In this document: piece after piece, positions 17,526 through 37,599 of the stretch
How the letters are laid out: each line of letters starts with the position of its first letter
How positions within the stretch are numbered: position 1 is the first letter of the stretch
Source of the DNA: Lactimicrobium massiliense
GTDB taxonomy: Bacteria > Bacillota_I > Bacilli_A > Erysipelotrichales > Erysipelotrichaceae
DNA: 64,000 bases
Reading direction: 5' to 3'
Assembly: GCF_900343155.1 (NCBI RefSeq)
Contig: NZ_OUNG01000002.1
Location: 310,001-374,000, forward strand
Position numbers and translations under genes: made by a program
The notes under the pieces: model-generated
The model's input: only the letters and a program-made list of their open reading frames with translations
Databases searched by the model: none
Told to the model about the DNA's origin: nothing

Positions 17526-17641
17526 TGCACAAGGAAAGTGCACTTTGGATCATTAAAGGAATTGCTCCCCCTTTAGCAATTCGCCAAAGATTCTATCCCC
17601 TTAAATAAAAAGAGAGAAGGCCCGGTGTGAGGGCCTTTTCT
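17526..17641 (+). ncRNA. Candidate small RNA 2 with C-rich loop and CUAUCCCC
   Basis: No reading frame occupies this stretch, but it is highly structured: hairpin TGCAC/GTGCA (17526-17542); outer stem CTTTGG/CCAAAG (17543-17548 with 17584-17589) enclosing stem AATTGCT/AGCAATT (17560-17581) whose loop is CCCCCTTT; a single-stranded CTATCCCC (17593-17600); and an intrinsic terminator AAGGCCC/GGGCCTT plus T-run (17618-17639). Unpaired CCCC tracts in a terminator-ended RNA of about 115 nt resemble the UCCC-motif sRNAs of Staphylococcus (Rsa family) and Listeria (LhrC), which pair with Shine-Dalgarno sequences. An untranslated leader is unlikely because a full terminator precedes the next gene. 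Confidence 0.6.
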
Positions 17642-17647
17642 CATGGT

Positions 17648-17684
17648 TTGACACATATATGAATGCATGGTAAAAATGAGAATA
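17648..17684 (+). promoter_or_regulatory. Promoter with leaderless start (kinase gene)
   Basis: -35 TTGACA (17648-17653), 17-bp spacer, -10 TAAAAA preceded by TGG (hexamer 17671-17676), 7-nt gap, ATG 17684; no SD sequence. Confidence 0.6.
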
Positions 17685-18250
17685 TGTGGGAAAAAGAACG
17701 TGAAATTCTGAGAAAAAGGGCGTCTGAACTTCCGGTGCCCTGCATCATTGCCATTGATGGCAGATGCGGATCAGGCAAGACAACACTGGGGACGCTGCTG
17801 GCCTGTGATCTGCATGCTGACCTGCTGCACATGGATGATTTCTTCCTGCAGGAATATCAGCGTACCTCGGCAAGATATGCAGTACCGGGAGAAAACGTTG
17901 ACCATGAACGTGTGGAAGAAGTGCTGAAACAGTGGCGCTTTCATAAACCCTTTTCCTATCAGAAGTTTGACTGTACACAGATGGCACTTGGAGAGACGGT
18001 ATCTCTTGTGCCTGGAAATATACTTGTTGTGGAGGGGTCCTACTGCATGCATTCGCAGCTGCGGAAATACTATGATTTCTGCGTGTTTGTAACGATTGAT
18101 CCGTCTTTGCAGCAGAAACGCCTTCTGGCGCGTGAAGGGGAGCAGAAGCTTGCCGTGTTCAATGCGCGCTGGATTCCTCTGGAAGAGAAGTATTTTGCGG
18201 CATTTGAGCCGGAGAAACAGGCAGATCTGGTGCTGAAAGCATACGAATAA
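17684..18250 (+). CDS. Uridine-kinase-like P-loop kinase
   Basis: 188 residues from ATG 17684 (MWEKEREILRKRA), chosen because the -10 ends 7 nt upstream; in-frame ATG 17663 would lie before the transcription start. P-loop DGRCGSGKTTLG near residue 28, MDDFF (residues 54-58) and the NILVVEGSYC strand (about 113-122) fit the uridine kinase/phosphoribulokinase superfamily (compare DDFF in uridine kinase). Probable role: phosphorylation of a nucleoside or small alcohol in the cytoplasm; the exact substrate is not evident. Single-gene unit with a weak terminator-like hairpin (GCCAGA...TCTGGC) after it. Confidence 0.82.
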   Translation: MWEKEREILRKRASELPVPCIIAIDGRCGSGKTTLGTLLACDLHADLLHMDDFFLQEYQRTSARYAVPGENVDHERVEEVLKQWRFHKPFSYQKFDCTQMALGETVSLVPGNILVVEGSYCMHSQLRKYYDFCVFVTIDPSLQQKRLLAREGEQKLAVFNARWIPLEEKYFAAFEPEKQADLVLKAYE

Positions 18251-18309
18251 CAGCCAGAAGCGGCGTATTGTCTGGCCTTTCCGGTGATTTGATTGCTTTA
18301 AAAATCAGT

Positions 18310-18351
18310 AGTGCTACAATATTCCTGCCTCTGGGAGGGTTTTTTTAAGTA
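18310..18351 (+). promoter_or_regulatory. Extended -10 promoter of the trk operon
   Basis: TGC-TACAAT (hexamer 18314-18319) with a normal leader carrying SD GGGAGG before ATG 18351, unlike the leaderless genes in this window. Confidence 0.6.
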
Positions 18352-19715
18352 TGAAGATATTAATCGTTGGCGCAGGCAAGGTGGGATATACCTGTACGGC
18401 GCAGCTGTCCAGGGAAGGACATGACATCACGCTTGTGGATGTGCGTCCGGATGTTTTGGAGAAGGCGCAGGGTGCCTATGATGTCATTGCGGTGACGGGG
18501 AATGGTGCATCGCTGTCGACACTGCAGGCAGCAGGCATTACCGATATGGATGTGCTGATTGCGGTGTCCAATGCGGATGAGGTCAATCTGCTGGCTTGCA
18601 TTACCGCCAAGCATCTGAATCCGCACATCAATTGCATTGCGCGTATCCGTGATCCTGAATATGTTGCCCAGGCATATGAAATGCGTGATGAGTTCGGCCT
18701 GTATCTGGTGGTGAATCCGGAACGTCAGGCAGCCCATGAAATTTTCCAGCTTCTGAAGCTGCCGGGATCTCTGACACGTGAGACCTTTGCCAAGGCTCGT
18801 ATGGAGATGATTGAACTGCGGGTGGCAGAAGGATCCCTGCTGTGCGGCAAACGGTTGAGTGAACTGGAAAATGCGGTGCATACACGTGTTCTTGTCTGTG
18901 CAATTGAGCGTCATGGCGAGGTGATCATCCCACGTGGTGATGCGTCTTTGATGGCGGGTGACAGAATCTCCGTTACCGGTTCCAGCAATAATCTGCATCA
19001 GATGCTTGTTCATCTTGGCATTATCAGGAAGAATATCCGCCATGTTCTGATTGCCGGGGGCGGCCGGATCAGCTACTATCTGGCTTCTGAACTGGGACGT
19101 TCTGGCATGACTGCCAATATCATTGAATCGGATGCATCGCGCTGTGAGGAACTGGCTGATCTGCTGCCGGACGCAACGGTAGTGCATGGGGATGCGTCCA
19201 GTCAGTCTTTTCTGGAAACAGAGGATCTGACGGACTATGATGCTGTGGTAAGCTGCACAGGCATTGATGAGCTGAACATTGTTATATCCATGTATGCGTC
19301 CATGTGTCATGTTCCGCTGACGATTACCAAGCTTGGCCGCGGTGACAGCAGCCGTATTCTGGACAGTCTGCCGGTGGGACCGACGGTATGCCCGAAGGAT
19401 CTGTGCACGACGCATATTGTCCGCTATGTAAGAGCGATGGAGCACAGTTCTGGTCTGTCTGCCCTGTCAGTGCATAAGATTGCGTCCGGCAATGCTGAGG
19501 TGCTGGAGTTTGTTGTGGATGAAAATACAAAGCACATCGGTGAAAAGCTCAAGGATATGCCGATTCAGAAGAATGTTCTGATTGCATCGATCAGCAGCGG
19601 CAGAACGACAGAGATTGCCCATGGTGATATGACGTTCCATGCCGGTGATACAGTTGTCATTGTTGCGGCCAGTGATCATGTCATTGGTACGCTGAATGAT
19701 ATTTTCGGGGAGTAA
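18351..19715 (+). CDS. trkA: Trk potassium uptake regulatory protein TrkA
   Basis: 454 residues with two complete RCK units: Rossmann NAD-binding core GAGKVGYTC (residue 6 on) and a second AGGGRISYYLASELG (about residue 232), each followed by a TrkA_C domain (for example MIELRVAEGSLLCGKRL and LEFVVDENTKHIGEKL). The VTGNGASLSTLQAAG stretch is typical. It sits on the cytoplasmic face and gates TrkH in response to NAD(H)/ATP. Six bases separate it from the transporter gene, so the two form the trkAH operon. Normal length and no anomalies. Confidence 0.95.
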   Translation: MKILIVGAGKVGYTCTAQLSREGHDITLVDVRPDVLEKAQGAYDVIAVTGNGASLSTLQAAGITDMDVLIAVSNADEVNLLACITAKHLNPHINCIARIRDPEYVAQAYEMRDEFGLYLVVNPERQAAHEIFQLLKLPGSLTRETFAKARMEMIELRVAEGSLLCGKRLSELENAVHTRVLVCAIERHGEVIIPRGDASLMAGDRISVTGSSNNLHQMLVHLGIIRKNIRHVLIAGGGRISYYLASELGRSGMTANIIESDASRCEELADLLPDATVVHGDASSQSFLETEDLTDYDAVVSCTGIDELNIVISMYASMCHVPLTITKLGRGDSSRILDSLPVGPTVCPKDLCTTHIVRYVRAMEHSSGLSALSVHKIASGNAEVLEFVVDENTKHIGEKLKDMPIQKNVLIASISSGRTTEIAHGDMTFHAGDTVVIVAASDHVIGTLNDIFGE

Positions 19716-19721
19716 GCTGAG

Positions 19722-21179
19722 ATGAATTGGAAAATGATATGGCGCATCATTGCCTGGATTCTGGTTGTAGAAGCGGGCCTGATGCTGCCGGCATTGTTCA
19801 TATCCATTGGCTATCATGAACCTGCTGCCATCTATGGCTATTGCCTGACCCTGCCGATTATTCTTGGCTGTGCCGGTATTCTGTTCCTTCTGACACGGAA
19901 TGCCAGAAAGGGCTTCTATCAGCGGGAAGGCTTTGTTACAACTGGCCTGAGCTGGCTGGTGATGTCTGCTCTTGGCTGTCTTCCCTTCTTCTTTTCCCGG
20001 GAAATTCCCAATTACATCGACTGTTTATTCGAAATGGTCTCAGGTTTCACGACCACTGGTTCTTCCATCCTTACGGATGTGGAAGCACTGGACAAGGGAC
20101 TTCTCTGGTGGCGGTCTTTCTCACACTGGGTCGGCGGCATGGGCGTGCTTGTCTTCCTGATGGCAATTGTTCCCCTTGGCGGAAAGAATCAGGGCTTCAC
20201 CCTGCATATTCTGCGGGCAGAGTCCCCCGGTCCTGCCGTTGGCAAGATGGCACCGCGCATGAAGGAGACGGCACTGATCCTGTACCGTTTGTATCTTGTC
20301 CTGACTGTACTGAACATTATCTTTCTACTGGCTGGCGGGATGGACTGGTTCTCTGCCTGCTGCATTGCCTTTGGCACAGCCGGCACCGGCGGCTTCTCTG
20401 TTCTCAACAGCTCCTGTGCTTCCTATTCGCCTTACATTCAGTGGGTAACAACGATCTTCATGTTTGCCTTTGCGGTTAACTTTTCGATCTATTACCTGCT
20501 TTGGCTGCGCAACTTCAAAGCAGTCTGGAAGGATGAGGAACTTCGCGGGTATCTGCTGATCATTGCTGTGACGATTACAGCTCTGGTGCTCAATGTACGC
20601 GGAATGTATGGCTCACTGTCAGAAACGATCCGGCATTGTGCCTTTACGGTTGCGACAATCATGTCCACAACCGGATATGCAACAACGGACTTCAATCTGT
20701 GGCCTGCTTTTGCCAAGGCCATCATTCTGTTCCTGATGTTTGTTGGTGCCTGTGCAGGCAGTACCGGCGGCGGCATCAAGGTGATCCGGGTGATTCTGCT
20801 TGGCAAGATTCTGCGCCGCAACGTGCATGAAAACCAGCATCCTGATGAAGTCAGTGCCATCCGTATCAATGACCGCAAAGTGGATGAGCAGGTCATCCGC
20901 AATTGTGAGGCATATCTGATTGCCTATGCCGGCATCGTCATCCTCAGCTTCCTGATCGTTTCTCTGGATGGCTTTACGGTAGAAACCAATTTTTCTGCAG
21001 TCATGGCAACGTTCAATAACATCGGGCCTGGTCTGGATGCAGTTGGACCGACTTCCAACTTTGCGGCGTACAGTGCCCTTTCAAAGATTGTCATGACCTT
21101 TGATATGCTGGCCGGCCGTCTGGAGATCTATCCGATCATCATGCTGTTCTCCCGCCGTACATGGCGCAAGAGAAGATAA
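19722..21179 (+). CDS. trkH: Potassium uptake transporter TrkH
   Basis: 485 residues with eight or more membrane helices and four pore-loop selectivity segments: FTTTGSS, GTAGTGGFS, STTGYAT and NNIGPGL. A conserved SFSHWVGGMGVLVF follows the first loop and GACAGSTGGGIKVIR lies in the third unit. It imports K+ (with H+ or Na+) and is regulated by TrkA encoded just upstream. Length is as usual for TrkH/TrkG. The operon ends with a strong terminator. Confidence 0.95.
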   Translation: MNWKMIWRIIAWILVVEAGLMLPALFISIGYHEPAAIYGYCLTLPIILGCAGILFLLTRNARKGFYQREGFVTTGLSWLVMSALGCLPFFFSREIPNYIDCLFEMVSGFTTTGSSILTDVEALDKGLLWWRSFSHWVGGMGVLVFLMAIVPLGGKNQGFTLHILRAESPGPAVGKMAPRMKETALILYRLYLVLTVLNIIFLLAGGMDWFSACCIAFGTAGTGGFSVLNSSCASYSPYIQWVTTIFMFAFAVNFSIYYLLWLRNFKAVWKDEELRGYLLIIAVTITALVLNVRGMYGSLSETIRHCAFTVATIMSTTGYATTDFNLWPAFAKAIILFLMFVGACAGSTGGGIKVIRVILLGKILRRNVHENQHPDEVSAIRINDRKVDEQVIRNCEAYLIAYAGIVILSFLIVSLDGFTVETNFSAVMATFNNIGPGLDAVGPTSNFAAYSALSKIVMTFDMLAGRLEIYPIIMLFSRRTWRKRR

Positions 21180-21197
21180 GCATCACAATAGAAATGC

Positions 21198-21232
21198 ACA
21201 CACTGTCAGCTGATCTGCTGGCAGTGTTTTTT
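21198..21232 (+). terminator. Intrinsic terminator after trkH
   Basis: ACACTGTCAGC, loop, GCTGGCAGTGT, then TTTTTT. Confidence 0.88.
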
Positions 21233-21270
21233 CATCGTGCTATACTGACTGCTATCAGGAGGAAATCGAG

Positions 21271-22407
21271 ATGATTATTCATAATGGACTGGTTCATGAT
21301 GCCATTCACCGTGAGCCATATCGTGCTGACATTCTGGTAAAGGCTGGAAAGATTCAAGATATCGGCACGGATCTGCCATCTGATGAAGAACTGGTGGATG
21401 TAAAGGATGCCAATGTGTATCCGGGCTTTGTAGAGGCGCACTGTCATCTTGGCTTGGATGGCTATGGCATTGGTTTTGAGGGGCGTGACTACAATGAACG
21501 CAATGATATCTGTACGCCGCAGCTGCGTGCGATTGACAGCTTCAATCCCCAGGATCCTGCCATTGCCATGGCAGCGAAGGCAGGCGTGACGTGTGCTGCC
21601 ACCGGACAAGGCAGTTCCAATGCAATCGGCGGTCTTTGGACGTGTGTAAAGACAACCGGCATCTGTGTAGATGACATGATCGTAAGAGACAACATTGCCA
21701 TGAAGTGTGCACTTGGTGAAAATCCGAAGCGCTGCTATCAGGATAAAGGTAATTGTGCAAGGATGTCCACGGCAGCTGTGATTCGCAATATGCTGTTTCA
21801 GACGAAGGATTATATGGCACGCAAAGCTGCTGCCAATGGTGATCCGCTGAAGATGCCTGCCTTTGATATGAAGTATGAGGCCATGATTCCGGTCATTGAG
21901 AAGAAGATCCCGCTGAAGATTCATGCCCATCAGGCCAATGATATTCTGACGGCGATCCGGATTGCCAGAGAGTTTGATGTCAAACTGACATTGGAACATG
22001 TAACGGAAGGTCATCTGATTGTGGATATTCTGAAACGGTATCCGGATCTGCCTCTGGCAGTTGGACCGACTTTGACCAATGCGTCCAAGTTTGAGCTGCA
22101 GAACAAATCCTGGACAACGCCTGGCATTCTTGCCAAAGCGGGCTGCCATGTGTCGATTATTACCGATGCTCCGGTTATTCCGCTGCAGTATCTGCCGCTT
22201 TGTGCCGGTTATGCCATCAAGGCAGGCATGGATCCCTTTGATGCATTGCAGGCCATCACAATCCATCCGGCTGAGCATATCGGTGTTTCAGACAGAGTGG
22301 GTTCCATTGAAGTGGGCAAGGATGCGGATCTTGTCATCATCGATGGCTCACCGTTTGAAGTATCCTCAACTGTCAGACAGGTATACATCGCCGGAGAACA
22401 ATTGTAA
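21271..22407 (+). CDS. Amidohydrolase (imidazolonepropionase/dihydroorotase-like)
   Basis: 378 residues with SD AGGAGG. Metal-dependent hydrolase of the amidohydrolase superfamily: an N-terminal beta-sandwich piece, then VEAHCHLGLDGYG with the HxH metal pair (near residues 56-58), KIHAHQAND and LEHVTEGH with further His ligands, and ITDAPVIP with the catalytic Asp (about residue 297). The C-terminal strand GSIEVGKDADLVIIDG closes the sandwich and is a hallmark of the family. The substrate cannot be named; isoaspartyl dipeptidase/imidazolonepropionase-like relatives often annotate this type simply as amidohydrolase. Promoter TGC-TATACT (21240-21245). Downstream lies the split small RNA 1. Confidence 0.88.
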   Translation: MIIHNGLVHDAIHREPYRADILVKAGKIQDIGTDLPSDEELVDVKDANVYPGFVEAHCHLGLDGYGIGFEGRDYNERNDICTPQLRAIDSFNPQDPAIAMAAKAGVTCAATGQGSSNAIGGLWTCVKTTGICVDDMIVRDNIAMKCALGENPKRCYQDKGNCARMSTAAVIRNMLFQTKDYMARKAAANGDPLKMPAFDMKYEAMIPVIEKKIPLKIHAHQANDILTAIRIAREFDVKLTLEHVTEGHLIVDILKRYPDLPLAVGPTLTNASKFELQNKSWTTPGILAKAGCHVSIITDAPVIPLQYLPLCAGYAIKAGMDPFDALQAITIHPAEHIGVSDRVGSIEVGKDADLVIIDGSPFEVSSTVRQVYIAGEQL

Positions 22408-22470
22408 AAGTTCACCTATTGTTCACATACAGGACATATTTGTATCACATTTTTCTCCTAGTATTACAAC

Positions 22471-22565
22471 TGTCAGATGGGAAAACATCTGATGATAATC
22501 TCCCAAAGATTAGGAAGTTCTCCAGACCCCCCATCCTGGAGAAATACTTCCCCCCCAAAGAAACC
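22471..22565 (+). ncRNA. Candidate small RNA 1, 5' part (split from its terminator by the insertion sequence)
   Basis: Between the amidohydrolase and the first insertion sequence lie three hairpins: TCAGATG/CATCTGA (22473-22492), TAATCT/AGATTA with loop CCCAA (22496-22512), and TTCTCCAG/CTGGAGAA with loop ACCCCCCATC (22518-22543, extended by GGAAG/CTTCC). A single-stranded CTTCCCCCCCAAAG follows (22547-22560). If the two inserted copies are removed, AAACC joins GTCTATCCCCCATGG at 26046, completing a terminator hairpin AAACCGTC/GACGGTTT whose loop is again C-rich. The whole would be about 120 nt with four C-rich exposed segments, like LhrC or Rsa sRNAs. In the present sequence it lacks its terminator, so it is probably inactive or extended. 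Confidence 0.55.
22561..22565. repeat. Target duplication AAACC, left copy
   Basis: AAACC occurs at 22561-22565, 24301-24305 and 26041-26045, exactly bounding and separating the two insertion-sequence copies. Confidence 0.85.
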
Positions 22566-24300
22566 GAGCGTTGTCGAAAACTCTTAGGAGTACAGGCAAC
22601 GCTCTTTTCTCTGTGCTCCTCATTTCATAATCCCCCCACTTTTTCGCTGTCAACTCTTGACAAAATTTCAAGCGTGCCCTGCTCGCTTCGCTCGCTTTTC
22701 TTGAAAAGGTGGGAGGTGAGTGAAATGCTCAAACATATCTCTTCGTCCCTGGAATATCGTGCTTTCCTTAGGGATGAAAAAGATCATCTTGGTTATGCTC
22801 AGCTTAAACGACTGGATACTTCTAAGTTCCATTCTGCTTTGCATAAGCTTCGGAAGCTGGACGTCGATCTTGCCGTAGATGTTCTGTTTCCTCTCTACTC
22901 TGTTACCGGCCGTCCGGCTCATGACCCCGCTGTGCTCATCCGGTCCTTCATTCTCATGCAGCACCTCGGGTATTTGTCCATTCATAACTGGTGTGCAGAT
23001 CTGTCTTCTGATTCTCTGCTTCAATGGCTGATTGGCTCTTTCTCTCCGCCTGGTCCTGCTTCTCATTACGACTTTATCAATCGTTTAACGCACTCAGATC
23101 CACATCTCTCTGATCTGCTGCAGCAGGGTTACTATACGAAGCCTTCTCAAAAGAAACCCAAGAACCATGACAAGCTGATTAACTATTCACATTCCGAAAC
23201 CTTATTTCTCGCTGACAAATATAAAAACGGCGCCGAATGGGATCGGGATCGGATGATCTACACACTTCAGTCTCTCTTCAATGCACTGGCTGTGATTCCT
23301 TCTTCCGACATGGGATTCATTGAGTCGAATAATCTCATCTTGTCCGGAGATGGTTCTTCGCTTCACATCCACGCCTCTCCATTTGGCCACAAAGTCAAAT
23401 TGGATAAGGATGGAAATCCTCTCGTCCGCTATTCTGCACCTGACGCTGACATCGGATGGGACAGTGATCTTGAGTCCTACTATCTCGGCTACACTCTTTA
23501 CAACATCTCGTACCACAATCCCCATAGATCAGTAGACTTGCCTATCTATATCGATCTTGAGAAAGCCTCACGGCACGATGCTTTGACCACCATATCTGCC
23601 TCAGCACGTCTGTTTGACATGAATCCCGATATCCACCCGCGATACATGTGCTTTGACGCAGCTTCTGACAGTCTTGCCATCTTTCAGTTCTTCCGTCACA
23701 AGAATATTATTCCAATCATCGACCGCAATCAACGGTCTGCTGGGGACAATCCCTTTGATAAGTTCAAGCTGAATGAGAATGGCGTGCCTGTTTGTCCGAA
23801 TGGAACACCGATGTATGACTATGGCTACGACATTCAGAGAAAGCGCAGAAAATTCCGCTGCCCACTCAGGATGAATAAGATTTCCTCCTGTCCATTTGCG
23901 AATGAGTGCAGTTCTTCCGCTTATGGAAGAACGATATACGTCAATGACGGTGATGACATCCGGCTCTTCGGACCTGTTCCATACAGGTCTGAAAAGTGGA
24001 AAGAGATTTACCGGAACAGAACTTCGACAGAAAGAATGAACACCAGAATCCTGAACGACTATCATCTTCACCAGATGAAAATCCGTAATGGATCCAAGCA
24101 TGCTTTCTTCGCAATCTTTGCCGGCATCAATATCCATCTTGATGCCTGGATAAAGGATGAGCTGTAAGCATTGAAGATTCAGTTTTGAAAGAACGAGTTC
24201 CAAAGTTGTTTTTATTGCGCCTTGGCCGCAATTTTTTATATCTCCGGCTTCTCAGCCGTCAGATACCTATCAGTTGCCTTCCGGGTTTTCGACACTACTC
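22566..24300 (+). mobile_element. Insertion sequence, copy 1 (1735 bp)
   Basis: Left end GAGCGTTGTCGAAAAC and right end (complement) GAGTAGTGTCGAAAAC match at 13 of 16 positions, giving imperfect terminal inverted repeats. The 5-bp direct repeats AAACC bound it. One transposase gene fills most of it, with an internal terminator (ATTGCG/CGCAAT plus T-run, about 24217-24240) after the gene. The 5-bp duplication and single DDE gene fit the IS4/IS1182 group; the exact family is not settled by eye. Confidence 0.9.
22725..24167 (+). CDS. DDE transposase, copy 1 (IS1182/IS4-like)
   Basis: 480 residues from ATG 22725 (MLKHISSSLEYRAF) with SD GGGAGG; the upstream extension of the frame crosses the element's left end and is not used. 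The N-terminus has a DUF772-like block (GRPAHDPAVLIRSFILMQ, HLGYLSIHNWCADL). The RNase H-like catalytic residues are visible: Asp in LSGDGSSLHIH, Asp in MCFDAASDS, Glu in STERMNTRIL. A Cys-rich segment (CPNGTPM, CPLRMNKISSCPFANEC) between them resembles the zinc-like insertion of IS1182 transposases. It differs from copy 2 at one residue (Ser in CADLSSDSLLQ versus Phe). Confidence 0.92.
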   Translation: MLKHISSSLEYRAFLRDEKDHLGYAQLKRLDTSKFHSALHKLRKLDVDLAVDVLFPLYSVTGRPAHDPAVLIRSFILMQHLGYLSIHNWCADLSSDSLLQWLIGSFSPPGPASHYDFINRLTHSDPHLSDLLQQGYYTKPSQKKPKNHDKLINYSHSETLFLADKYKNGAEWDRDRMIYTLQSLFNALAVIPSSDMGFIESNNLILSGDGSSLHIHASPFGHKVKLDKDGNPLVRYSAPDADIGWDSDLESYYLGYTLYNISYHNPHRSVDLPIYIDLEKASRHDALTTISASARLFDMNPDIHPRYMCFDAASDSLAIFQFFRHKNIIPIIDRNQRSAGDNPFDKFKLNENGVPVCPNGTPMYDYGYDIQRKRRKFRCPLRMNKISSCPFANECSSSAYGRTIYVNDGDDIRLFGPVPYRSEKWKEIYRNRTSTERMNTRILNDYHLHQMKIRNGSKHAFFAIFAGINIHLDAWIKDEL

Positions 24301-24305
24301 AAACC

Positions 24306-26040
24306 GAGCGTTGTCGAAAACTCTTAGGAGTACAGGCAACGCTCTTTTCTCTGTGCTCCTCATTTCATAATCCCCCCACTTTTTCGCTGTCAACTCTTGA
24401 CAAAATTTCAAGCGTGCCCTGCTCGCTTCGCTCGCTTTTCTTGAAAAGGTGGGAGGTGAGTGAAATGCTCAAACATATCTCTTCGTCCCTGGAATATCGT
24501 GCTTTCCTTAGGGATGAAAAAGATCATCTTGGTTATGCTCAGCTTAAACGACTGGATACTTCTAAGTTCCATTCTGCTTTGCATAAGCTTCGGAAGCTGG
24601 ACGTCGATCTTGCCGTAGATGTTCTGTTTCCTCTCTACTCTGTTACCGGCCGTCCGGCTCATGACCCCGCTGTGCTCATCCGGTCCTTCATTCTCATGCA
24701 GCACCTCGGGTATTTGTCCATTCATAACTGGTGTGCAGATCTGTCTTCTGATTTTCTGCTTCAATGGCTGATTGGCTCTTTCTCTCCGCCTGGTCCTGCT
24801 TCTCATTACGACTTTATCAATCGTTTAACGCACTCAGATCCACATCTCTCTGATCTGCTGCAGCAGGGTTACTATACGAAGCCTTCTCAAAAGAAACCCA
24901 AGAACCATGACAAGCTGATTAACTATTCACATTCCGAAACCTTATTTCTCGCTGACAAATATAAAAACGGCGCCGAATGGGATCGGGATCGGATGATCTA
25001 CACACTTCAGTCTCTCTTCAATGCACTGGCTGTGATTCCTTCTTCCGACATGGGATTCATTGAGTCGAATAATCTCATCTTGTCCGGAGATGGTTCTTCG
25101 CTTCACATCCACGCCTCTCCATTTGGCCACAAAGTCAAATTGGATAAGGATGGAAATCCTCTCGTCCGCTATTCTGCACCTGACGCTGACATCGGATGGG
25201 ACAGTGATCTTGAGTCCTACTATCTCGGCTACACTCTTTACAACATCTCGTACCACAATCCCCATAGATCAGTAGACTTGCCTATCTATATCGATCTTGA
25301 GAAAGCCTCACGGCACGATGCTTTGACCACCATATCTGCCTCAGCACGTCTGTTTGACATGAATCCCGATATCCACCCGCGATACATGTGCTTTGACGCA
25401 GCTTCTGACAGTCTTGCCATCTTTCAGTTCTTCCGTCACAAGAATATTATTCCAATCATCGACCGCAATCAACGGTCTGCTGGGGACAATCCCTTTGATA
25501 AGTTCAAGCTGAATGAGAATGGCGTGCCTGTTTGTCCGAATGGAACACCGATGTATGACTATGGCTACGACATTCAGAGAAAGCGCAGAAAATTCCGCTG
25601 CCCACTCAGGATGAATAAGATTTCCTCCTGTCCATTTGCGAATGAGTGCAGTTCTTCCGCTTATGGAAGAACGATATACGTCAATGACGGTGATGACATC
25701 CGGCTCTTCGGACCTGTTCCATACAGGTCTGAAAAGTGGAAAGAGATTTACCGGAACAGAACTTCGACAGAAAGAATGAACACCAGAATCCTGAACGACT
25801 ATCATCTTCACCAGATGAAAATCCGTAATGGATCCAAGCATGCTTTCTTCGCAATCTTTGCCGGCATCAATATCCATCTTGATGCCTGGATAAAGGATGA
25901 GCTGTAAGCATTGAAGATTCAGTTTTGAAAGAACGAGTTCCAAAGTTGTTTTTATTGCGCCTTGGCCGCAATTTTTTATATCTCCGGCTTCTCAGCCGTC
26001 AGATACCTATCAGTTGCCTTCCGGGTTTTCGACACTACTC
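24306..26040 (+). mobile_element. Insertion sequence, copy 2 (1735 bp, tandem)
   Basis: Same length and termini as copy 1, joined to it by a single AAACC (24301-24305). I see one nucleotide difference affecting the protein (C at 23014, T at 24754). Same orientation as copy 1. Confidence 0.9.
24465..25907 (+). CDS. DDE transposase, copy 2
   Basis: Same 480-residue protein as copy 1 except for Ser to Phe in the N-terminal DUF772-like domain (CADLSSDF). The DDE residues, cysteine segment and SD are unchanged, so both copies could be active. The near-identity of the two copies means a recent tandem insertion or duplication, or an assembly artefact; the single base difference argues that both copies were seen in reads. 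Confidence 0.9.
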   Translation: MLKHISSSLEYRAFLRDEKDHLGYAQLKRLDTSKFHSALHKLRKLDVDLAVDVLFPLYSVTGRPAHDPAVLIRSFILMQHLGYLSIHNWCADLSSDFLLQWLIGSFSPPGPASHYDFINRLTHSDPHLSDLLQQGYYTKPSQKKPKNHDKLINYSHSETLFLADKYKNGAEWDRDRMIYTLQSLFNALAVIPSSDMGFIESNNLILSGDGSSLHIHASPFGHKVKLDKDGNPLVRYSAPDADIGWDSDLESYYLGYTLYNISYHNPHRSVDLPIYIDLEKASRHDALTTISASARLFDMNPDIHPRYMCFDAASDSLAIFQFFRHKNIIPIIDRNQRSAGDNPFDKFKLNENGVPVCPNGTPMYDYGYDIQRKRRKFRCPLRMNKISSCPFANECSSSAYGRTIYVNDGDDIRLFGPVPYRSEKWKEIYRNRTSTERMNTRILNDYHLHQMKIRNGSKHAFFAIFAGINIHLDAWIKDEL

Positions 26041-26072
26041 AAACCGTCTATCCCCCATGGACGGTTTTTCTT
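26041..26072 (+). terminator. Terminator of small RNA 1, displaced by the insertion
   Basis: AAACCGTC, loop TATCCCCCATG, GACGGTTT plus TTC. The left arm begins with the AAACC target duplication, so the hairpin was regenerated intact on the right side while the RNA body is now 3.5 kb away. Confidence 0.8.
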
Positions 26073-28011: not shown

Positions 28012-29969
28012 GTGTGTCGGGCATGGCACACATCTAGCCTGCAATAGAGGCAGGCCGCGGGTATTTGTCGCCAAGCGAAGTGAACTACCAGCCGAGGGTG
28101 AATAACCCAGAGCGAAAGCAGTAGCTAGCATATTTCTGAGCTTACGTACAGAAACCTGATTGAGGCCATAAGGCGGATAAGGCTGCTATGCAAGCTGAAG
28201 TCCAAAAGACAAACGTAAAGCCGACCGGTAAATCAGGAAGCTATGGAAATTACAGATGTGTGTCTTACCCCGAGAGATCCTGCGGACAGATGAACCCAAA
28301 CACAGGGAAACCGAGACGCTTTTAAACAGCTATCGTTATCATCTGGTCGGATAAAGGTCTATCGCAGGAAGTCAGCTGAGGTCATAGTAGTGATGAAGCT
28401 TCTGTAACGGAAGTGGAGCGAAGGACCTAATGTTTGTATAGTGTGCCCCACTATACGCAATGTTCGGATAGTCCGAAAGGGAGGATAAGCCTACAGCAGA
28501 GGATCGTAACCTCTGACGGCAAAGGGCCCCGGGATGATTCTGAATAATCTACAGATAGAAAGGAATGGCACAGCGGTATGGAATTAATTGAAGTGATTCT
28601 GAGTGACGAAAACTTGGAAGAAGCGATCAGAAGGGTTAAGAGAAACCGTGGCGCGGCCGGCGTGGACGGCATGAAAACCAGTGAGCTGGATGAGTATTTC
28701 TCTAAACATAAAGAAATAATCAAACAGCAGATCCGGAACATGCAGTACAGACCGAAACCAGTCCGCAGGGTCTATATACCCAAGCCCAATGGCAAGCAAA
28801 GGCCATTAGGTATTCCGTCAGTCGCAGACCGGGTGGTACAGCAGGCAGCAGCCCAGGTACTCAGCGGCATCTACGACAGCACATTCAGTGACCATAGTTA
28901 TGGATTCAGGCCAAACAGAAGCGCACATGATGCGATGAAGGATGTCCTGAATAATCTGAACAGCGGATACGACTGGGTGATTGATCTCGACATCGAAAAG
29001 TATTTCGATACGGTGAATCATGACAAATTAATCTCCATTTTGAGAGAAAAGGTAAACGACAAGAGAACGTTACACCTGATCCGGTCCTTTCTGAAGGCTG
29101 GCGTCATGGTGAACGGACTCGTATCACCAACTGAACTAGGCGTTCCGCAAGGCGGACCCCTCAGTCCGATACTTAGCCTTATTTATCTCGATAAATTTGA
29201 CAAAGAACTGGAGAGCAGAGGACTGCATTTTGTGCGGTACGCAGATGACTGCGACATCTTCGTGAAGAGCGAAATGGCGGCAGACAGAGTGATGAAGTCG
29301 GTAGCCTCATGGCTGGAACGAAAGCTGTTTCTGAAGGTCAGTCCAACCAAGACAAAGGTGGTCAGGCCAACACACAGCGAGTTCCTAGGCTTTACGTACT
29401 GGAAGGCAAAAGACGGATGGCACTGCAAACCGAGTGATGACAGAAAGAAACGGCTGATGGCGAAAACCAAGGCTGTCCTGCAACGCAAGGAAGCAATATC
29501 CAGACCTCTGGCCGTCACATTCACAAAACTGAATCAGATCGTCAGAGGATGGATCAATTATTTCATCATCGGAGATATGAAGGCTTTCCTCGATGAATAT
29601 GGACAGTGGATGCGGCACAAAGTCAGAGTCATCATCATCAAGCAATGGAAGAAACCGAAGCGTATAGACACAAATCTCCAAAGGCTTAACGCTATGTTCC
29701 ATTGTAATTTCACCGATGAAGATACATACAAGGTAGCCAACTCACGCCTAGGATGGTATCGGAGGAGTGGAATGGATGTGGTAAATTACGCTCTCAGCCC
29801 GAAAGTACTGGCCCTGCCAAGTAGGAAAACAGGTCGACCAGGACTGGTCAACCCGTTGGAATACTACCTCAATAATCGTAAGTAAATACAAACGTAGCGC
29901 CGTATACGGAAAACCGTACGTACGGTGCAACGGGAGGGTCGAGCCGCTAACGCGGCTCACTCTACCCTA
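28012..29969 (+). mobile_element. Group II intron with maturase gene
   Basis: A 5' GTGTG-like end (28012) opens about 565 nt of structured, gene-free RNA (domains I-III, with typical stretches such as GGAGCGAAGGACC). The LtrA gene sits in the domain IV position. Downstream, domain V is recognised at 29896-29928 (AGCGCCGTATACGG, AAAA, CCGTACGTACGGTGC) and domain VI at 29932-29969 (GAGCCGC/GCGGCTC). Exact ends are estimated to a few bases. It lies between a terminator hairpin and the start region of the esterase gene, in the sense direction. Confidence 0.9.
28578..29885 (+). CDS. ltrA: Group II intron reverse transcriptase/maturase
   Basis: 435 residues. The RT domain is complete: RVYIPKPNGKQRPLGIPS, DLDIEKYFDTVNH, VPQGGPLSPIL and the catalytic FVRYADD. 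A maturase X domain follows (RGWINYFIIGDM, W...RHKVRV). No HNH endonuclease domain at the C-terminus, so mobility would use retrohoming into single-stranded or replication-fork DNA. Start ATG 28578 has a weak SD (GAAAGGAATG). It sits in the intron loop and needs the intron RNA for function. Confidence 0.95.
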   Translation: MELIEVILSDENLEEAIRRVKRNRGAAGVDGMKTSELDEYFSKHKEIIKQQIRNMQYRPKPVRRVYIPKPNGKQRPLGIPSVADRVVQQAAAQVLSGIYDSTFSDHSYGFRPNRSAHDAMKDVLNNLNSGYDWVIDLDIEKYFDTVNHDKLISILREKVNDKRTLHLIRSFLKAGVMVNGLVSPTELGVPQGGPLSPILSLIYLDKFDKELESRGLHFVRYADDCDIFVKSEMAADRVMKSVASWLERKLFLKVSPTKTKVVRPTHSEFLGFTYWKAKDGWHCKPSDDRKKRLMAKTKAVLQRKEAISRPLAVTFTKLNQIVRGWINYFIIGDMKAFLDEYGQWMRHKVRVIIIKQWKKPKRIDTNLQRLNAMFHCNFTDEDTYKVANSRLGWYRRSGMDVVNYALSPKVLALPSRKTGRPGLVNPLEYYLNNRK

Positions 29970-30913: not shown

Positions 30914-30956
30914 TGCGATCTGCGGTACACTTGAGAAGAAAACAAGAGGTATCGCA

Positions 30957-32252: not shown

Positions 32253-32265
32253 CAGCAGGATGAAA

Positions 32266-32306
32266 AAATGCTGGCAGGCTGTTTCAAAAACCTGCTGGCA
32301 TTTTTT
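32266..32306. terminator. Bidirectional terminator between pepC and the HAD gene
   Basis: ATGCTGGCAGG pairs (with two G-U pairs) to CCTGCTGGCAT; A-tract before and T-tract after serve both strands. Confidence 0.88.
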
Positions 32307-32307
32307 T

Positions 32308-33156: not shown

Positions 33157-33170
33157 ATGTCAGTATTGTA
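33156..33170 (-). promoter_or_regulatory. -10 giving a leaderless start (HAD gene)
   Basis: TACAAT on the minus strand at plus-strand 33165-33170; 8-nt gap (33157-33164) to the ATG; no SD. Confidence 0.6.
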
Positions 33171-33219
33171 ACCGGCAAATGATAAATGCAGGTTGTAAAT
33201 GATTTTCCTGCAGGCAAAA

Positions 33220-33765
33220 TCAGGATTGATCCGCTGTGTGTTTCGGTGTTCGTCTGACAACAGATACAGCGGTCAGGTCGATGATGATTCCGAATACGAT
33301 AGATGTCAGTACATCAGATGGAAAATGGACAAACAGATACAGTCTTGAGAAACTGATCAGGATGGCAAGAGGAATGGCAGCCCAGCCAAACCTGTGATTG
33401 GCACATGTAATGATCACGGCACTGATGACCGCTGTAAGGGTATGGCCGGATGGAAAGGAATAATCTTTTGGCATATGAATGAGCAGATTTACATTTTCGA
33501 TCCAGCATGGTCTGGGTCTTGCGATGATATTCTTCAGAATGACATCACAGGTAAGGTTTCCACAGAGAATTCCTGCCATCAATGCAATGCCGTATTTCCG
33601 GTATTTCTTTGAGGCAAACAGAAGGACAGCCGCCAGTAACCAGATCAGGCTGCCATTGCCAAGCATCGTGATTTTGGGCATTAGAAAATCCAGTAAGGGA
33701 CAGCGCAAATAGTGCTGGATGAAGTGCAGAATCATCCAGTCTGTGTTTTGAATCCATGTAAGCAT
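33220..33765 (-). CDS. PAP2-family phosphatase
   Basis: 181 residues from ATG 33765 (MLTWIQNTDWMILHF); five to six membrane helices. PAP2 motifs: KNIIARPRPCW (KxxxxxxRP), FPSGHTLTAV (PSGH) and SRLYLFVHFPSDVLTS (SRxxxxxHxxxD). It dephosphorylates undecaprenyl pyrophosphate or phosphatidic acid on the outer face of the membrane. A -10 TACAAT (plus-strand 33781-33786) lies 15 nt upstream with no SD, so the leader is about 8 nt, close to leaderless. It may also be read from the MATE operon 70 bp upstream. Confidence 0.92.
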   Translation of the reverse strand: MLTWIQNTDWMILHFIQHYLRCPLLDFLMPKITMLGNGSLIWLLAAVLLFASKKYRKYGIALMAGILCGNLTCDVILKNIIARPRPCWIENVNLLIHMPKDYSFPSGHTLTAVISAVIITCANHRFGWAAIPLAILISFSRLYLFVHFPSDVLTSIVFGIIIDLTAVSVVRRTPKHTADQS

Positions 33766-33834
33766 GATATTACCGGTATTATTGTAGCGGATTGGCAAAG
33801 AAAAGCCTGATGGATATGCATCAGGCTGGATCAA

Positions 33835-34410
33835 TCAGTACAGCTGGGTGAGGATGTCGACACACTTGTCAATGCCAAGTCTGCCAGAGTCCAGGCAGAT
33901 ATCATAGTTCTGGGCATGGCCCCACTTCATGTCGGTATAGAAGCGGTGATAGGCTGCTCTGCGCTTATCCTTGTCTTTGAGTCTTTGCTCAGGAGATTCC
34001 GGACGCTCGCCATATTCCTTGACAATGCGCTCTGCCCGCTTTTCCATGCTGGCATGGATGAAGACAGTCAGGCAGTCTTCCTTGTCTTTCAGGACATAGT
34101 CGGCACATCTGCCGACAATGACACATGGTGATTTCTCGGCCAGATCGAGAATGACCTTGCACTGGATCTGCCAGATGAGATCCTGGTTGGTCGGGCCTGC
34201 CTGGCGGTTGGCCAGGACGGCACCCAGCCAGCCGCCAGGTGTGTCTTCGCTGTCCTCTTTGAGATAGCTTTCGGCATAGCCGCTTTCTGCCGCAATCTTC
34301 TGAATGATCTCGGCATCATAGCAGGGAATGTTCAGCTTTTTTGCGGTCAGTCTGCCAATGGTGCGGCCGCCGCTGCCAAATTCACGGCTGATGGTAATGA
34401 TTCTGTTCAT
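33835..34410 (-). CDS. Cytidylate-kinase-like protein
   Basis: 191 residues. P-loop variant REFGSGGRTIGRL (residues 9-21) and the LID-like region (RDADYV equivalent GRCADYVL, then KRAERIVKEYGE, KDKDKRRAAYHRFY) place it in the cytidylate-kinase-like family (AAK_CMK-like), separate from the core Cmk. The ATG overlaps the MATE stop by 4 bp (ATGA), indicating tight co-translation. The substrate is probably a nucleoside monophosphate, but this subfamily is uncharacterised. Confidence 0.86.
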   Translation of the reverse strand: MNRIITISREFGSGGRTIGRLTAKKLNIPCYDAEIIQKIAAESGYAESYLKEDSEDTPGGWLGAVLANRQAGPTNQDLIWQIQCKVILDLAEKSPCVIVGRCADYVLKDKEDCLTVFIHASMEKRAERIVKEYGERPESPEQRLKDKDKRRAAYHRFYTDMKWGHAQNYDICLDSGRLGIDKCVDILTQLY

Positions 34411-35813
34411 GCAATTTTCTCCTTTCTATCAAGTTCTCTGTATGTCTGTATGATAATACATAATGCGACGATAAACGTAAGAATATCGGCTGCCGGGAAG
34501 GAATACAGCAGACCGTTCAGCTGGAACTTCAGCGGCAGCAGGATTGGCAGGGAGACACCAAGTACAATTTCTCTGACCATGGAAATGATGGTGGATTCCA
34601 CCGGCTTGCCCATCGCCTGCAGGAAGATGAAGGAACCTTTGTTTACGGTTGCCAGCGGCATCATGCAGAGGTATATGCGGAAACATCTGATGGCAAAGTC
34701 GCGGTAGTATTCGCTTTCGTTCCTTGCACCAAACAGATTGATGATATTGGCAGGGAAGACTTCGACGATGACAAGGGCTGCCAGACCGATCAGGAATTCT
34801 GCTGTCAGCAGATAGGAGAAGAATTTCTTTGCACGGTCATTGCGCTTGGCACCGATGTTATAGCCAACCACCGGAATACAGCCTGCCGCAAGGCCGACGG
34901 CAATGGAAATGACAATCTGGAAGAATTTCATGACAATGCCAAGAACTGCCAGCGGGATCTGGGCATACTGTTCCTGGGAGAAGATCGGATCCAGGGCGCC
35001 GTATTTTGTGCATACATTCTGGACAACGGCCATGGAAACAACGAGTGAAATCTGGGACAGGAAACTTGTGATGCCAAGCGACAGGAATTTCTTCATCAGG
35101 CTTCCCCAAAGGCCGAAGCTGTTTTTATGCAGCTGAATGGCTTTCATGTGGAATAGGTACCAGATGGAAAGAATGGCTGTCAGGATCTGACCCATGACGG
35201 TGGCAATGGCAGCACCGGCCATGCCCATGTGCATCGGGAAGATGAAAACAGGATCCAGGATGATGTTGGCTATCGCACCAGCCAGAGTGGCTGCCATGGC
35301 AAAGTTGGGGGAGCCATCTGAACGGATAATGGAGTTAACGGCCTGACCGAACATGTAGAAGGGGATGCCAAGCGTGATCCAGAAGAAGTATTCTTTGGCA
35401 TTCCTGAATGTGTCTGCGTTGACTCTGCCGCCAAACAATGTCAGTAACGGTTCCTGCAGAATCAGATAGAGGGCTGTGAGAATGATGCTGGCAATGATGC
35501 AGAGTACAATGGCATTGCCTACCGTTTTGTGGGCACGTTCCTGTTCACCGGCACCAAGTGAGATGCTGACATAGGCGCAGGCACCGTCACCGATCATGAC
35601 GGCAATGGCCAGGGCAACAATAGTCAGTGGAAAGACAACTGTATTGGCAGCGTTGCCGTAGGAGCTAAGGTAGCTCGCATTGGCAATGAAGATCTGGTCA
35701 ACAATGTTGTAGAGGGCTGCAACCAGCAGTGAAATGATGCAGGGGACAGAGAACTTCCGCATCAGTCTGCCGACGCTCTCTGTCTCCATGAAGGCATTTG
35801 TTTTTTCTTCCAT
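34407..35813 (-). CDS. MATE-family efflux transporter
   Basis: 468 residues from ATG 35813 (MEEKTNAFMETESVG), with SD AAAGGGG; the frame extends further upstream into the leader. Twelve predicted helices; the MATE repeat GRLMRKFSVPCIISLL at the start and LSLGITSFLSQISLVVS at the half-way point are typical of DinF/NorM-like MATE proteins. It exports cationic drugs or metabolites using Na+ or H+. Its mRNA leader carries an intrinsic terminator before the start (35845-35881), suggesting attenuation. Followed at 4-bp overlap by the cytidylate-kinase-like gene. Confidence 0.93.
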   Translation of the reverse strand: MEEKTNAFMETESVGRLMRKFSVPCIISLLVAALYNIVDQIFIANASYLSSYGNAANTVVFPLTIVALAIAVMIGDGACAYVSISLGAGEQERAHKTVGNAIVLCIIASIILTALYLILQEPLLTLFGGRVNADTFRNAKEYFFWITLGIPFYMFGQAVNSIIRSDGSPNFAMAATLAGAIANIILDPVFIFPMHMGMAGAAIATVMGQILTAILSIWYLFHMKAIQLHKNSFGLWGSLMKKFLSLGITSFLSQISLVVSMAVVQNVCTKYGALDPIFSQEQYAQIPLAVLGIVMKFFQIVISIAVGLAAGCIPVVGYNIGAKRNDRAKKFFSYLLTAEFLIGLAALVIVEVFPANIINLFGARNESEYYRDFAIRCFRIYLCMMPLATVNKGSFIFLQAMGKPVESTIISMVREIVLGVSLPILLPLKFQLNGLLYSFPAADILTFIVALCIIIQTYRELDRKEKIA

Positions 35814-35844
35814 GTATGAATATCCCCTTTCATACCAGACCGAT

Positions 35845-35940
35845 AAAAAAATACAGTGAACGCAAAATGCGCACACTGTATCGTGACAGCCAATGGGCTT
35901 GTTTCGTATCGTGTCTGATAACATTCTGGAGTTTCGCGCC
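35845..35940 (-). promoter_or_regulatory. Structured leader with terminator upstream of the MATE gene
   Basis: On the minus strand: hairpin CTGGTTTT/AAACTCCAG (plus 35927-35950), small hairpin AGCC-CATT-GGCT (35889-35900), direct repeat CACGATAC twice, and an intrinsic terminator ACAGTG/CACTGT with T-run (35845-35880) about 30 nt before the start codon. I could not match it to a riboswitch class I know (purine, guanidine-I, preQ1 and TPP cores are absent). Either an attenuator or the terminator of a short upstream RNA. Confidence 0.5.
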
Positions 35941-36027
35941 AAAACCAGTTTTTGTCAAGCTCGAAAATGGCTGCATCATGGCACAAAAAGTACGGTATGA
36001 TGCAATAAGAAAACAGGAGTGATTGAC

Positions 36028-37506
36028 ATGAAGCAGCGGATGATCATAACAACAGACATGGAATGCGATGACATGAATTCTTTGATTCATTTATGTCTGT
36101 ATCTCAATGAAGTGGATCTGGAAGGTGTGATCTACACATCTTCCCAGTTTCATTTCAATGGTGACGGCATTCATACACAGGGTGAAATACAGCCTGATTA
36201 TCTGTGCGCAGGCGAAGCTGCCTGGAAGAGAAATCCCAGACTGCCAGGACCGGATCCTGATGCGGCGAAGCTGAAATCCTATCGGCCTTTTGAAACTGGC
36301 TGGATCGAGCATCTCTGGCAGAATGAATATGCACAGTGCCTGCCGTATTTACGGGAGAATGCATCGGGATACCCAACCGTGGAAGAGCTGATGAAGATCA
36401 CATGTTATGGCAATACTGCCTTTGAGGGTGATGTCAGCCAGGAAACCGATGGTTCCCGGCTGATTGCAGCAGCGATCAAGAAGGATGATGAAAGACCGCT
36501 GTATTTGTGTTCCTGGGGTGGCGCCAATACGATTGTGCGTGCACTGATGCGTATTGCCAATACGTATCAAGGCACAGACAAATGGGCTGAAATCCAGCAG
36601 TATGTCACAGACAAAGTCAGAATCTTTGGCATCATGGATGGTGTTGGCCAGGATAAGACATGGCTGAAATATGGCAGGCCCTTGTTTCCAAAGCTGAAAC
36701 TGCTGCGGTCTGAAGATATCTATGGCAGCTACTTTGCCTCAAAGAATGCACCGGCTGATTGCCGGTACATGTTTAATCCAGAATGGCTGAATAAATATAT
36801 CAAGCACTGCGGCAGTCCATTAGGAGAAAAGTATGGCCTGATGGGTGATGGCATCTATTACAAAGGAGAGCCGGATGATTATCAGTTTGGCCTGCATCCA
36901 TACATTGACTGGCATTTTCCACAATTGCCGCCGGTGTCCTTTGAAAAGGATGAATTTCTTGGTGAAGGTGACAGCAACACCTATATTCCTTTATTAAATA
37001 CTGGTTTAAGAGGACTGGAAGATGGCAGTTATGGCACATTGATTGGCAGGCTTTACCAGGATGGTACAAAGCTGAACAAGACAGATGATATATATTCCGG
37101 AGAAGCAGGCTGTGACAGTTCCTTCATCAAGGCATATCAGGAAGAATTTGCGGTACGCATGCAATGGACACATATGCATAAAGATCAGTGTACACATGCC
37201 CCGGCTGTGAAACTGGAACAGGATGATTTTACGGCAAAGCCAGGTGAAACAATTTCTCTTTTTGCAGTTGTACAGGATCCTGATGGCAGAGGCTTGCACT
37301 ATGGCTGGCGGCTGTATCATGCCGGTACAACATATCATGGCACCATGAAAGAACTGCGCGTCTTTGATCCGCTGTCACTGCATACATGCTTTACGATTCC
37401 AGAAGATGCTGTCAAAGACGATCAGTTCATCTTCCTGCTGGTGGTACGCAATGATACAGGGCTTCCCATTACCAGATATGGTGAAGCAGTGATTCACATC
37501 ATATAA
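36028..37506 (+). CDS. DUF1593 nucleoside-hydrolase-like protein
   Basis: 492 residues from ATG 36028 (MKQRMIITTDMECDD), with SD ACAGGAG. The IITTDMECDDMNSL opening has the Asp cluster used for calcium binding in nucleoside hydrolases, and LYLCSWGGANTIVRAL is the conserved family motif (about residues 162-177). A C-terminal beta domain (about 390-490, KPGETISLFAVVQDPDGRGLHYGWRLY) is the usual DUF1593 appendix. There is no signal peptide, so it is cytoplasmic. Role unknown; it may cleave a glycosidic bond of a nucleoside or pectic-type substrate. Its 3' end coincides with the promoter of small RNA 3. Confidence 0.85.
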   Translation: MKQRMIITTDMECDDMNSLIHLCLYLNEVDLEGVIYTSSQFHFNGDGIHTQGEIQPDYLCAGEAAWKRNPRLPGPDPDAAKLKSYRPFETGWIEHLWQNEYAQCLPYLRENASGYPTVEELMKITCYGNTAFEGDVSQETDGSRLIAAAIKKDDERPLYLCSWGGANTIVRALMRIANTYQGTDKWAEIQQYVTDKVRIFGIMDGVGQDKTWLKYGRPLFPKLKLLRSEDIYGSYFASKNAPADCRYMFNPEWLNKYIKHCGSPLGEKYGLMGDGIYYKGEPDDYQFGLHPYIDWHFPQLPPVSFEKDEFLGEGDSNTYIPLLNTGLRGLEDGSYGTLIGRLYQDGTKLNKTDDIYSGEAGCDSSFIKAYQEEFAVRMQWTHMHKDQCTHAPAVKLEQDDFTAKPGETISLFAVVQDPDGRGLHYGWRLYHAGTTYHGTMKELRVFDPLSLHTCFTIPEDAVKDDQFIFLLVVRNDTGLPITRYGEAVIHII

Positions 37507-37513
37507 TGATCAA

Positions 37514-37598
37514 AAAAAACAGACTGCCTATCCCTCACAAAGATCAGCAGTCTATGAATCTAACGGAGGACCAGCCGTCATCGGTGGTCCTTTTCCGT
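37514..37598 (+). ncRNA. Candidate small RNA 3 with CUAUCCCU loop
   Basis: A -10 TATAAT (37502-37507) overlaps the DUF1593 stop codon. About 7 nt later starts a stretch with hairpin AGACTGC/GCAGTCT (37521-37553) whose loop carries CTATCCCTC, then a terminator hairpin AGGACCA/TGGTCCT (37567-37591, with outer AACGGA/TCCGTT) and TTTT. The shared CTATCCC with candidates 1 and 2 is the reason to call it. It could simply be the DUF1593 terminator region. Confidence 0.4.
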
Positions 37599-37599
37599 T

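What the first reader, a model, noticed from the sequence alone, without database searches (positions are those of the whole stretch)
17526..37598. Family of three candidate sRNAs sharing a CUAUCCC motif in exposed C-rich segments
Three gene-free stretches (22471-22565 plus 26041-26072, 17526-17641, and 37514-37598) each combine hairpins, a C-rich loop or single strand, and an intrinsic terminator, and each contains CTATCCC (26048-26054, 17593-17599, 37528-37534). From established knowledge, the UCCC-motif sRNAs of Staphylococcus (Rsa) and Listeria (LhrC) use such segments to block Shine-Dalgarno sites. That these three form one regulon is inference.
Basis: partly seen in the sequence, partly recalled or inferred. 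Interest (0 to 1): 0.78.

Follow-up and report, generated by a model that had tools for sequence, protein, structure and literature searches.

The report
C-rich regulator RNAs in gut bacteria
Two of the three spots look like real genes for small C-rich RNAs that probably block protein making under stress-sensing regulators, part of a set found widely in a little-studied family of gut bacteria; the third spot is the leftover of an unrelated toxin-antitoxin gene.

Summary
Coordinates and folds are right, but CTATCCC is not enriched (6 hits, 4.79 expected) and the three loci are not one family. (B) 17526-17642 is a conserved structured RNA with two exposed C-runs, found in 17 of 27 genomes of the host's family, under an 11-bp triple repeat. 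A matrix of that repeat has its best position just upstream of pstS in 3 of 5 pstS loci, second best in one, none in the host's own: PhoP-like control is likely, unproven. (A) 22470-22565 belongs to a second, multicopy C-rich type under another 11-bp repeat (TTCACA-like). Of the 29 best such boxes in 12 genomes, 26 precede a C-rich sRNA; one more is A itself. A is split by two tandem IS1182-like copies; the CTATCCC at 26048 sits in its stranded terminator, and the IS end supplies a hairpin plus U-run. (C) 37514-37598 is a toxin-less copy of a type I toxin-antitoxin tail; its hairpin is a minus-strand terminator. A and B work like csRNA, LhrC and RsaE, but B misses the RsaE cut-off and neither has the CiaR repeat. 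No target was identified. Transcription, regulators and pairing are inferred.

The parts
17466..17498 (+). B-type promoter box: three 11-bp repeats (ATCACACAAAG TCACATATTTA AGACATAATTC)
   Evidence: scores 35.5 on the B matrix, 99.9% background -13.6; it is diverged: the exact-style pattern with up to 3 mismatches gives 0 hits in the own genome
17515..17520 (+). likely -10 element (TATCTT), read by eye against relatives
   Evidence: box to -10 distance as in relatives
17526..17642 (+). sRNA B: 5' hairpin 17526-17542, hairpin with CCCCC loop at 17567-17571, single-stranded ATTCTATCCCC 17590-17600, terminator about 17610-17642; ends inferred
   Evidence: own covariance-model hit 73.5 bits
22411..22449 (+). 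A-type promoter box: four 11-bp repeats (TTCACCTATTG TTCACATACAG GACATATTTGT ATCACA)
   Evidence: 0 mismatches to the box pattern; 38.3 on the A matrix, 99.9% background -8.6
22470..22565 (+). body of sRNA A: conserved 5' hairpin TGTCAGATG..CATCTGA and C-runs in two hairpin loops and one single strand
22566..24300 (+). first IS1182-like copy; its left end is a hairpin and U-run (22566-22611) that can end sRNA A
   Evidence: IS1182 model 71.5 bits, under its cut-off of 270
24306..26040 (+). second IS copy in tandem (1 mismatch of 1735)
26041..26072 (+). stranded original terminator of sRNA A, CTATCCC at the loop
37499..37600 (-). toxin-less tail of a type I toxin-antitoxin locus: bidirectional hairpin about 37561-37595 and minus-strand terminator (AGACTGC..GCAGTCT plus U-run, 37513-37553)

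Best explanation
Loci B and A are two different types of intergenic, trans-acting small RNAs. Each is probably switched on by an OmpR-family response regulator that binds direct repeats of 11-bp period, the first of which begins about 47-48 bp upstream of the -10 element. Each RNA holds C-runs open in hairpin loops and single strands, and would pair with G-rich Shine-Dalgarno sites to block translation. B is probably under a PhoP-like regulator. A belongs to a larger, diverging multicopy set whose regulator also seems to control genes with a VTC domain. In this strain A is cut by two tandem insertion sequences, but the first brings a terminator, so a somewhat longer sRNA may still be made. Locus C is apart: the antitoxin-side remnant of a type I toxin-antitoxin locus. 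Shown: conservation, structure, promoter boxes, copy number, IS junctions, paralogy of C. Inferred: transcription, regulators, pairing, targets.
For: B: 20 of 60 relatives by BLAST; 17 of 27 genomes of the family by covariance model; 92.4% of cells paired, 12 of 16 pairs changed on both sides, against 42.6-54.8% when slid; C-runs unpaired 0.94 on average, whole RNA 0.44. B box: 37 hits in 35 of 70 genomes, 0 in the reversed control; all 30 loci shown of the 37 run into a C-rich sRNA. B matrix best just upstream of pstS in L153, L154, L156. A: box alone in 12 genomes, 72 hits against 8 control; of 29 with 0-1 mismatch, 26 have a -10, a C-run and a terminator, and one more is locus A. Box followed by CCC and terminator: 60 of 67 unique A-boxes, 37 of 39 B-boxes, 76 of 1000 random windows (that pool holds loci first found as sRNAs).
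Against: No transcript data. The central hairpin of B was placed by hand (RNAalifold predicted only the 5' stem and the terminator) and is the weakest helix (86.1% paired). The own copy's B box is diverged (0 pattern hits) and the own pstS has no such site. At 1e-40 TIGR02136 was found in 2 of 30 B-bearing genomes I chose plus G043 (the threshold was strict). Of the 43 A-box hits with 2 mismatches only 8 lead to an sRNA. B keeps its neighbours in part. No recurrent target was found.
Confidence: 0.72

Rival explanations
1. Locus B is a cis-acting leader or attenuator of the downstream kinase gene (17663-18250).
For: The kinase is found downstream in 18 of 50 B loci and is the largest cluster of first downstream frames (14 of 49).
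Against: The other 35 of 49 loci have other first frames, in 24 further clusters, some perhaps because the held stretch is short. B ends in a strong terminator and occurs in tandem pairs.
Confidence: 0.1
2. A and B are driven by one and the same regulator, so they form one regulon as the reader proposed for all three.
For: Same 11-bp period and same distance to the -10. Window A scores 3.0 on the B matrix (99.9% background -13.6), window B -10.6 on the A matrix (99.9% background -8.6).
Against: 0 of 37 B-boxes and 1 of 69 A-boxes exceed the 99.9% background of the other matrix.
Confidence: 0.25
3. Locus C is a working + strand sRNA made from the 3' end of the gene 36019-37506.
For: A stable + strand fold with a terminator follows the gene.
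Against: Its paralogs are tails of small-peptide loci; the hairpin beside the A-run is a minus-strand terminator; no A- or B-type box was reported there by the box searches of the own genome.
Confidence: 0.1
4. The C-runs bind a protein rather than Shine-Dalgarno sites.
For: Repeated motifs in loops are also known from protein-binding sRNAs; the LhrC authors raise this (PMC4132741 section 25).
Against: In RsaE/RoxS and LhrC the C-rich motifs were shown to pair with mRNA (passages and sections).
Confidence: 0.12

Closest known systems
csRNAs of Streptococcus (CiaRH regulon; PMC3091779, passages read)
   Same: Several small RNAs per genome, driven by a response regulator through 11-bp-period direct repeats, with stem-loops and open anti-start segments; one csRNA gene there is also cut by an insertion sequence
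   Different: Their repeat is TTTAAG-N5-TTTAAG; here TTCACA-like x4 (A) or TCACATAATTT-like x3 (B)
LhrC1-5 of Listeria (LisRK; PMC4132741, passages and sections 17 and 25 read)
   Different: No LhrC match at gathering level in the window; regulator here unknown
RsaE/RoxS (Rfam RF01820; PMC4409812, passages read)
   Same: B aligns end to end with the model; C-run in a hairpin loop and again in the strand before the terminator
   Different: 18.7 bits against a cut-off of 79; other box than described for ResD, which I did not test
Type I toxin-antitoxin loci such as TxpA/RatA and Fst/par (recalled, no call)
   Same: Paralogs of locus C: small hydrophobic peptide frame plus shared hairpins on the other strand
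   Different: The window copy has no peptide frame; four of the peptides reach no Pfam or NCBIfam cut-off

Membership tests
RsaE/RoxS (RF01820) | Score at or above Rfam's gathering score | tested here: not met
   18.7 of 79 bits on B; 0 of 70 genus genomes over the cut-off, 28 of 70 at E up to 10, one of 14 control genomes over it
RsaE/RoxS (RF01820) | Transcription driven by ResD/SrrA | not tested
   No regulator was identified
LhrC | Match to the Rfam collection at gathering level | tested here: not met
   The whole-window scan lists only two group II intron matches
LhrC | Control by LisRK | not testable with these tools
   Needs mutants
csRNA | TTTAAG-N5-TTTAAG upstream of the -10 | tested here: not met
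   Box consensus of 69 A and 37 B promoters holds no such repeat
C-rich anti-Shine-Dalgarno sRNA (functional kind) | Exposed C-runs in loops and single strands | tested here: met
   B: 33 of 36 (loop) and 35 of 36 (strand) above 0.7 unpaired; A in the joined empty site: 1.0, 1.0, 0.71, 1.0
C-rich anti-Shine-Dalgarno sRNA (functional kind) | Blocks translation of a target by pairing | tested here: inconclusive
   AGGGGATAG-N1-10-ATG: 120 sites against 51 control in 70 genomes, some being the antisense of B itself, no gene recurring among the 30 loci read
Type I toxin-antitoxin (locus C) | Small hydrophobic toxin frame at the locus | tested here: not met
   None at 37400-37620; present by eye in 15 of 16 related tails
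Type I toxin-antitoxin (locus C) | Antisense RNA with hairpin and terminator | tested here: inconclusive
   Minus-strand fold -39.8 kcal/mol with U-run; promoter not shown

The most novel reading that the evidence does not exclude
In Erysipelotrichaceae one OmpR-type regulator works mainly through RNA: nearly all of its strong binding sites drive quickly diversifying anti-Shine-Dalgarno sRNAs, several per genome, and few protein genes (VTC domain and neighbours). A second, PhoP-like regulator drives a separate, older sRNA (B), which would make B a phosphate-starvation sRNA of this branch of the low-GC Gram-positives.
Probability: 0.45. Interest if true: 0.77.

Novelty: new variant of a known kind. 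Interest (0 to 1): 0.63.

Why it matters
I found no paper on such RNAs in this family in the searches made (none; 225 papers, 15 listed, none of those naming the family). The find gives a covariance model, two promoter boxes and dozens of loci, so a whole sRNA regulon in common gut and rumen bacteria can be tested with existing RNA-seq. It also suggests that response-regulator-driven C-rich sRNA sets, known from streptococci, Listeria and staphylococci, exist in another branch with different sequences: convergent or very old wiring.

Tried and rejected
RsaE membership: the Rfam model aligns end to end with B but at 18.7 bits, and in the genus hits other places at up to 24.9 bits. One of those (G007:C17:132441, 24.5 bits) is itself a C-rich sRNA behind a B-type box (L167), so the likeness is real but under the cut-off. 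One regulon for A and B: matrices do not cross-recognise. A PhoP-like site at the own pstS: not found; a transposase frame lies upstream of that gene. Two-component genes beside the own VTC gene: none seen by eye among frames of 120 residues or more in 16 kb, no family search made. Exact-complement target search: no recurrent gene. BLAST with the left flank of A alone gave four weak hits in other genomes; two (L011, L013) proved to be relatives and led to the 5'-hairpin pattern. Rows dropped: 17 of 53 contigs, in unrelated bacteria and without the structure by eye; 14 of 30 hits for lack of a C-rich continuation or as the reverse of another hit, by eye. A mistake found on checking: one search scanned the wrong stretch for L156; one search repeated it over the whole locus and the site appeared.

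Full report
Observation. The folds are better than shuffles, z -3.12 to -6.34. Rfam at gathering level lists only two group II intron matches in the window.

Host. The window lies in a 2.46-Mb genome in 7 contigs. Named contigs that carry locus B are mostly labelled Solobacterium sp. or Erysipelotrichaceae bacterium, among them NK3D112, so the host is probably an Erysipelotrichaceae gut or rumen bacterium. The own record was not named.

Locus B (17526-17642). BLAST with 171 bases matches 20 of 60 genomes, the own one included, all in the host genus. Aligned (36 sequences), they share a 5' hairpin, a hairpin with a CCCCC-UU loop, a single-stranded ATTCTATCCCCT and a terminator. My patterns required that last stretch, so its invariance in the alignment is imposed. 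In 30 loci found by promoter box alone, 23 keep CTATCCCC and all 30 have a TCCC. RNAalifold predicts 13 pairs in the 5' stem and the terminator, 10 of them with compensatory changes. With three central pairs added by hand, 92.4% of 564 cells pair and 12 of 16 pairs are changed on both sides; slid controls give 42.6-54.8%, shuffles 82.2% on average, 0 of 500 as high. C-runs are unpaired at 0.94 on average, the whole RNA 0.44. The covariance model hits 25 of 296 genomes of the class at E up to 0.01: 17 of 27 in the family, with up to four copies, and 8 of 269 outside it at 36 bits or less. Neighbours are partly kept: upstream gene in 17 of 50 loci, downstream kinase in 18 of 50, first downstream frames in 25 clusters of 49 loci.

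B promoter. Three repeats of 11-bp period, roughly TCACATAATTT-NACATAATNTT-NACATAAT. The pattern with up to 3 mismatches has 37 hits in 35 of 70 genus genomes and none in the reversed control; the own genome has none, as its box is diverged. I saw 30 of the 37: all run into a C-rich sRNA, 7 of other types than B. One exception turned up in a B-bearing contig (L057), a box without CCC behind it. A matrix of 37 boxes was scanned over five pstS loci. Its single best position lies 102, 121 and 95 bases before the pstS start in L153, L154 and L156 (of 7,618, 7,552 and 6,754 positions); 1 and 0 of 500 shuffles do as well for the first two. In L155 the site 100 bases upstream is second best; in the own genome no site scores. 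L154 and L156 are from one genome of another family. TIGR02136 at 1e-40 was found in 2 of 30 B-bearing genomes chosen and in G043, a strict threshold, and in the own genome. A PhoP-like regulator is the leading, unproven guess.

Locus A (22470-22565). A pattern for its 5' hairpin hits 18 of 70 genomes; I kept 16 of 30 hits, in 8 genomes, that go on into C-rich RNA. By eye, 21 of 22 further loci lead to a C-rich sRNA and 34 of 40 more; five of the other six start a gene that looks like a VTC-domain protein. A cleaner count uses the box alone (TTCA-N7-TTCACA-N7-CA-N9-CACA) in 12 genomes that I chose for assembly quality and known hits: 72 hits, 8 control. Of 29 with 0-1 mismatch, 26 have a -10 at the right distance, a C-run and a terminator (tandem copies counted singly); the other three are locus A, a VTC-like gene and one unexplained. 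Of 43 with 2 mismatches, 8 do. Pfam confirms VTC (PF09359) behind the box in the own genome and in G004, and DUF4956 (PF16316) next to it in G068; a Cthe_2159 gene (PF14262) lies near the own VTC gene, and one behind a 2-mismatch box in G082 scores just under its cut-off. The own genome has four sRNA-like A-type loci (C6:332411 = A, C7:495777, C4:248375, C4:139011), the VTC gene (C1:174405), and two more 2-mismatch hits without such features. Tandem arrays: four in G034:C68, three in G069:C14.

A and B share the period and the distance to the -10 (75 of 118 A and 17 of 38 B at 48 bases in a pool with some duplicates and chance hits; same place in both consensus lines). Yet 0 of 37 B-boxes and 1 of 69 A-boxes pass the other matrix's 99.9% background. 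Two related regulators are more likely than one.

Insertion at A. Two 1735-bp copies (1 mismatch) in tandem lie between the sRNA body and its terminator, with AAACC at each junction. The transposase is IS1182-like, under the model's cut-off. The joined empty site folds into four hairpins with the C-runs 0.71-1.0 open. The left IS end is itself a hairpin with a U-run, so sRNA A may still end there. The CTATCCC at 26048 is no longer part of it.

Locus C (37499-37600). A search with it finds four further copies in the own genome and matches in nine other genomes of 60, one of which (L021) covers only the end of the coding part. Of 16 related tails translated, 15 have by eye a frame of 31-64 residues that looks like a small hydrophobic peptide; L017 does not. 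Four peptides reach no Pfam or NCBIfam cut-off. The window copy has no such frame, and its A-run and hairpin form a minus-strand terminator.

Mechanism. From sequence: box, promoter, structured RNA, open C-runs, terminator. From papers: C-rich motifs of RsaE/RoxS and LhrC pair with Shine-Dalgarno regions (PMC4409812, passages; PMC4132741, passages and sections 17 and 25), and csRNAs join response-regulator repeats with anti-start segments (PMC3091779, passages). By inference the same holds here. My target scan found 120 AGGGGATAG-ATG sites against 51 in the control over 70 genomes, some being the antisense of B, and no gene recurring in the 30 loci read.

Known or new. B misses the RsaE cut-off and neither box class holds the CiaR repeat. 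Paper searches gave nothing on this family's sRNAs (0 papers; 15 listed of 225) or on a PhoP-driven sRNA in Bacillus (one Salmonella paper; none). I file A and B as new variants of the response-regulator-driven C-rich sRNA kind.

Noticed in passing
22566-26040; L247 (G021:C79); L283 (G092:C248): IS ends of similar sequence (GAGC..TCGAAAA) lie just behind the C-run of A-type sRNAs in three genomes (3 of 107 loosely defined A-type loci), as if this element likes sRNA terminators. No transposase was checked in the other two.
   Followed up: partly
L014, L024, L027, L030, L031 (own genome): A multicopy small-peptide locus with shared hairpins, apparently an unnamed type I toxin-antitoxin family of this genus.
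   Followed up: partly
L161, L166-L169 (other genomes): A further sRNA type behind B-type boxes, with TCCCTTTCCC and ATCCCCTTTGTAAATGA, recalling RoxS's CCCCUUUGUU repeat (RoxS repeat).
   Followed up: no
L321 (G093:C61:568-639): At least six TTCA repeats of 11-bp period in a row, with no sRNA seen behind them.
   Followed up: no
window 28094-28426: Group II intron domains (Rfam RF02001 and RF01998).
   Followed up: no
L152 (own pstS): A transposase frame sits directly upstream of the own pstS and may have changed its control.
   Followed up: no
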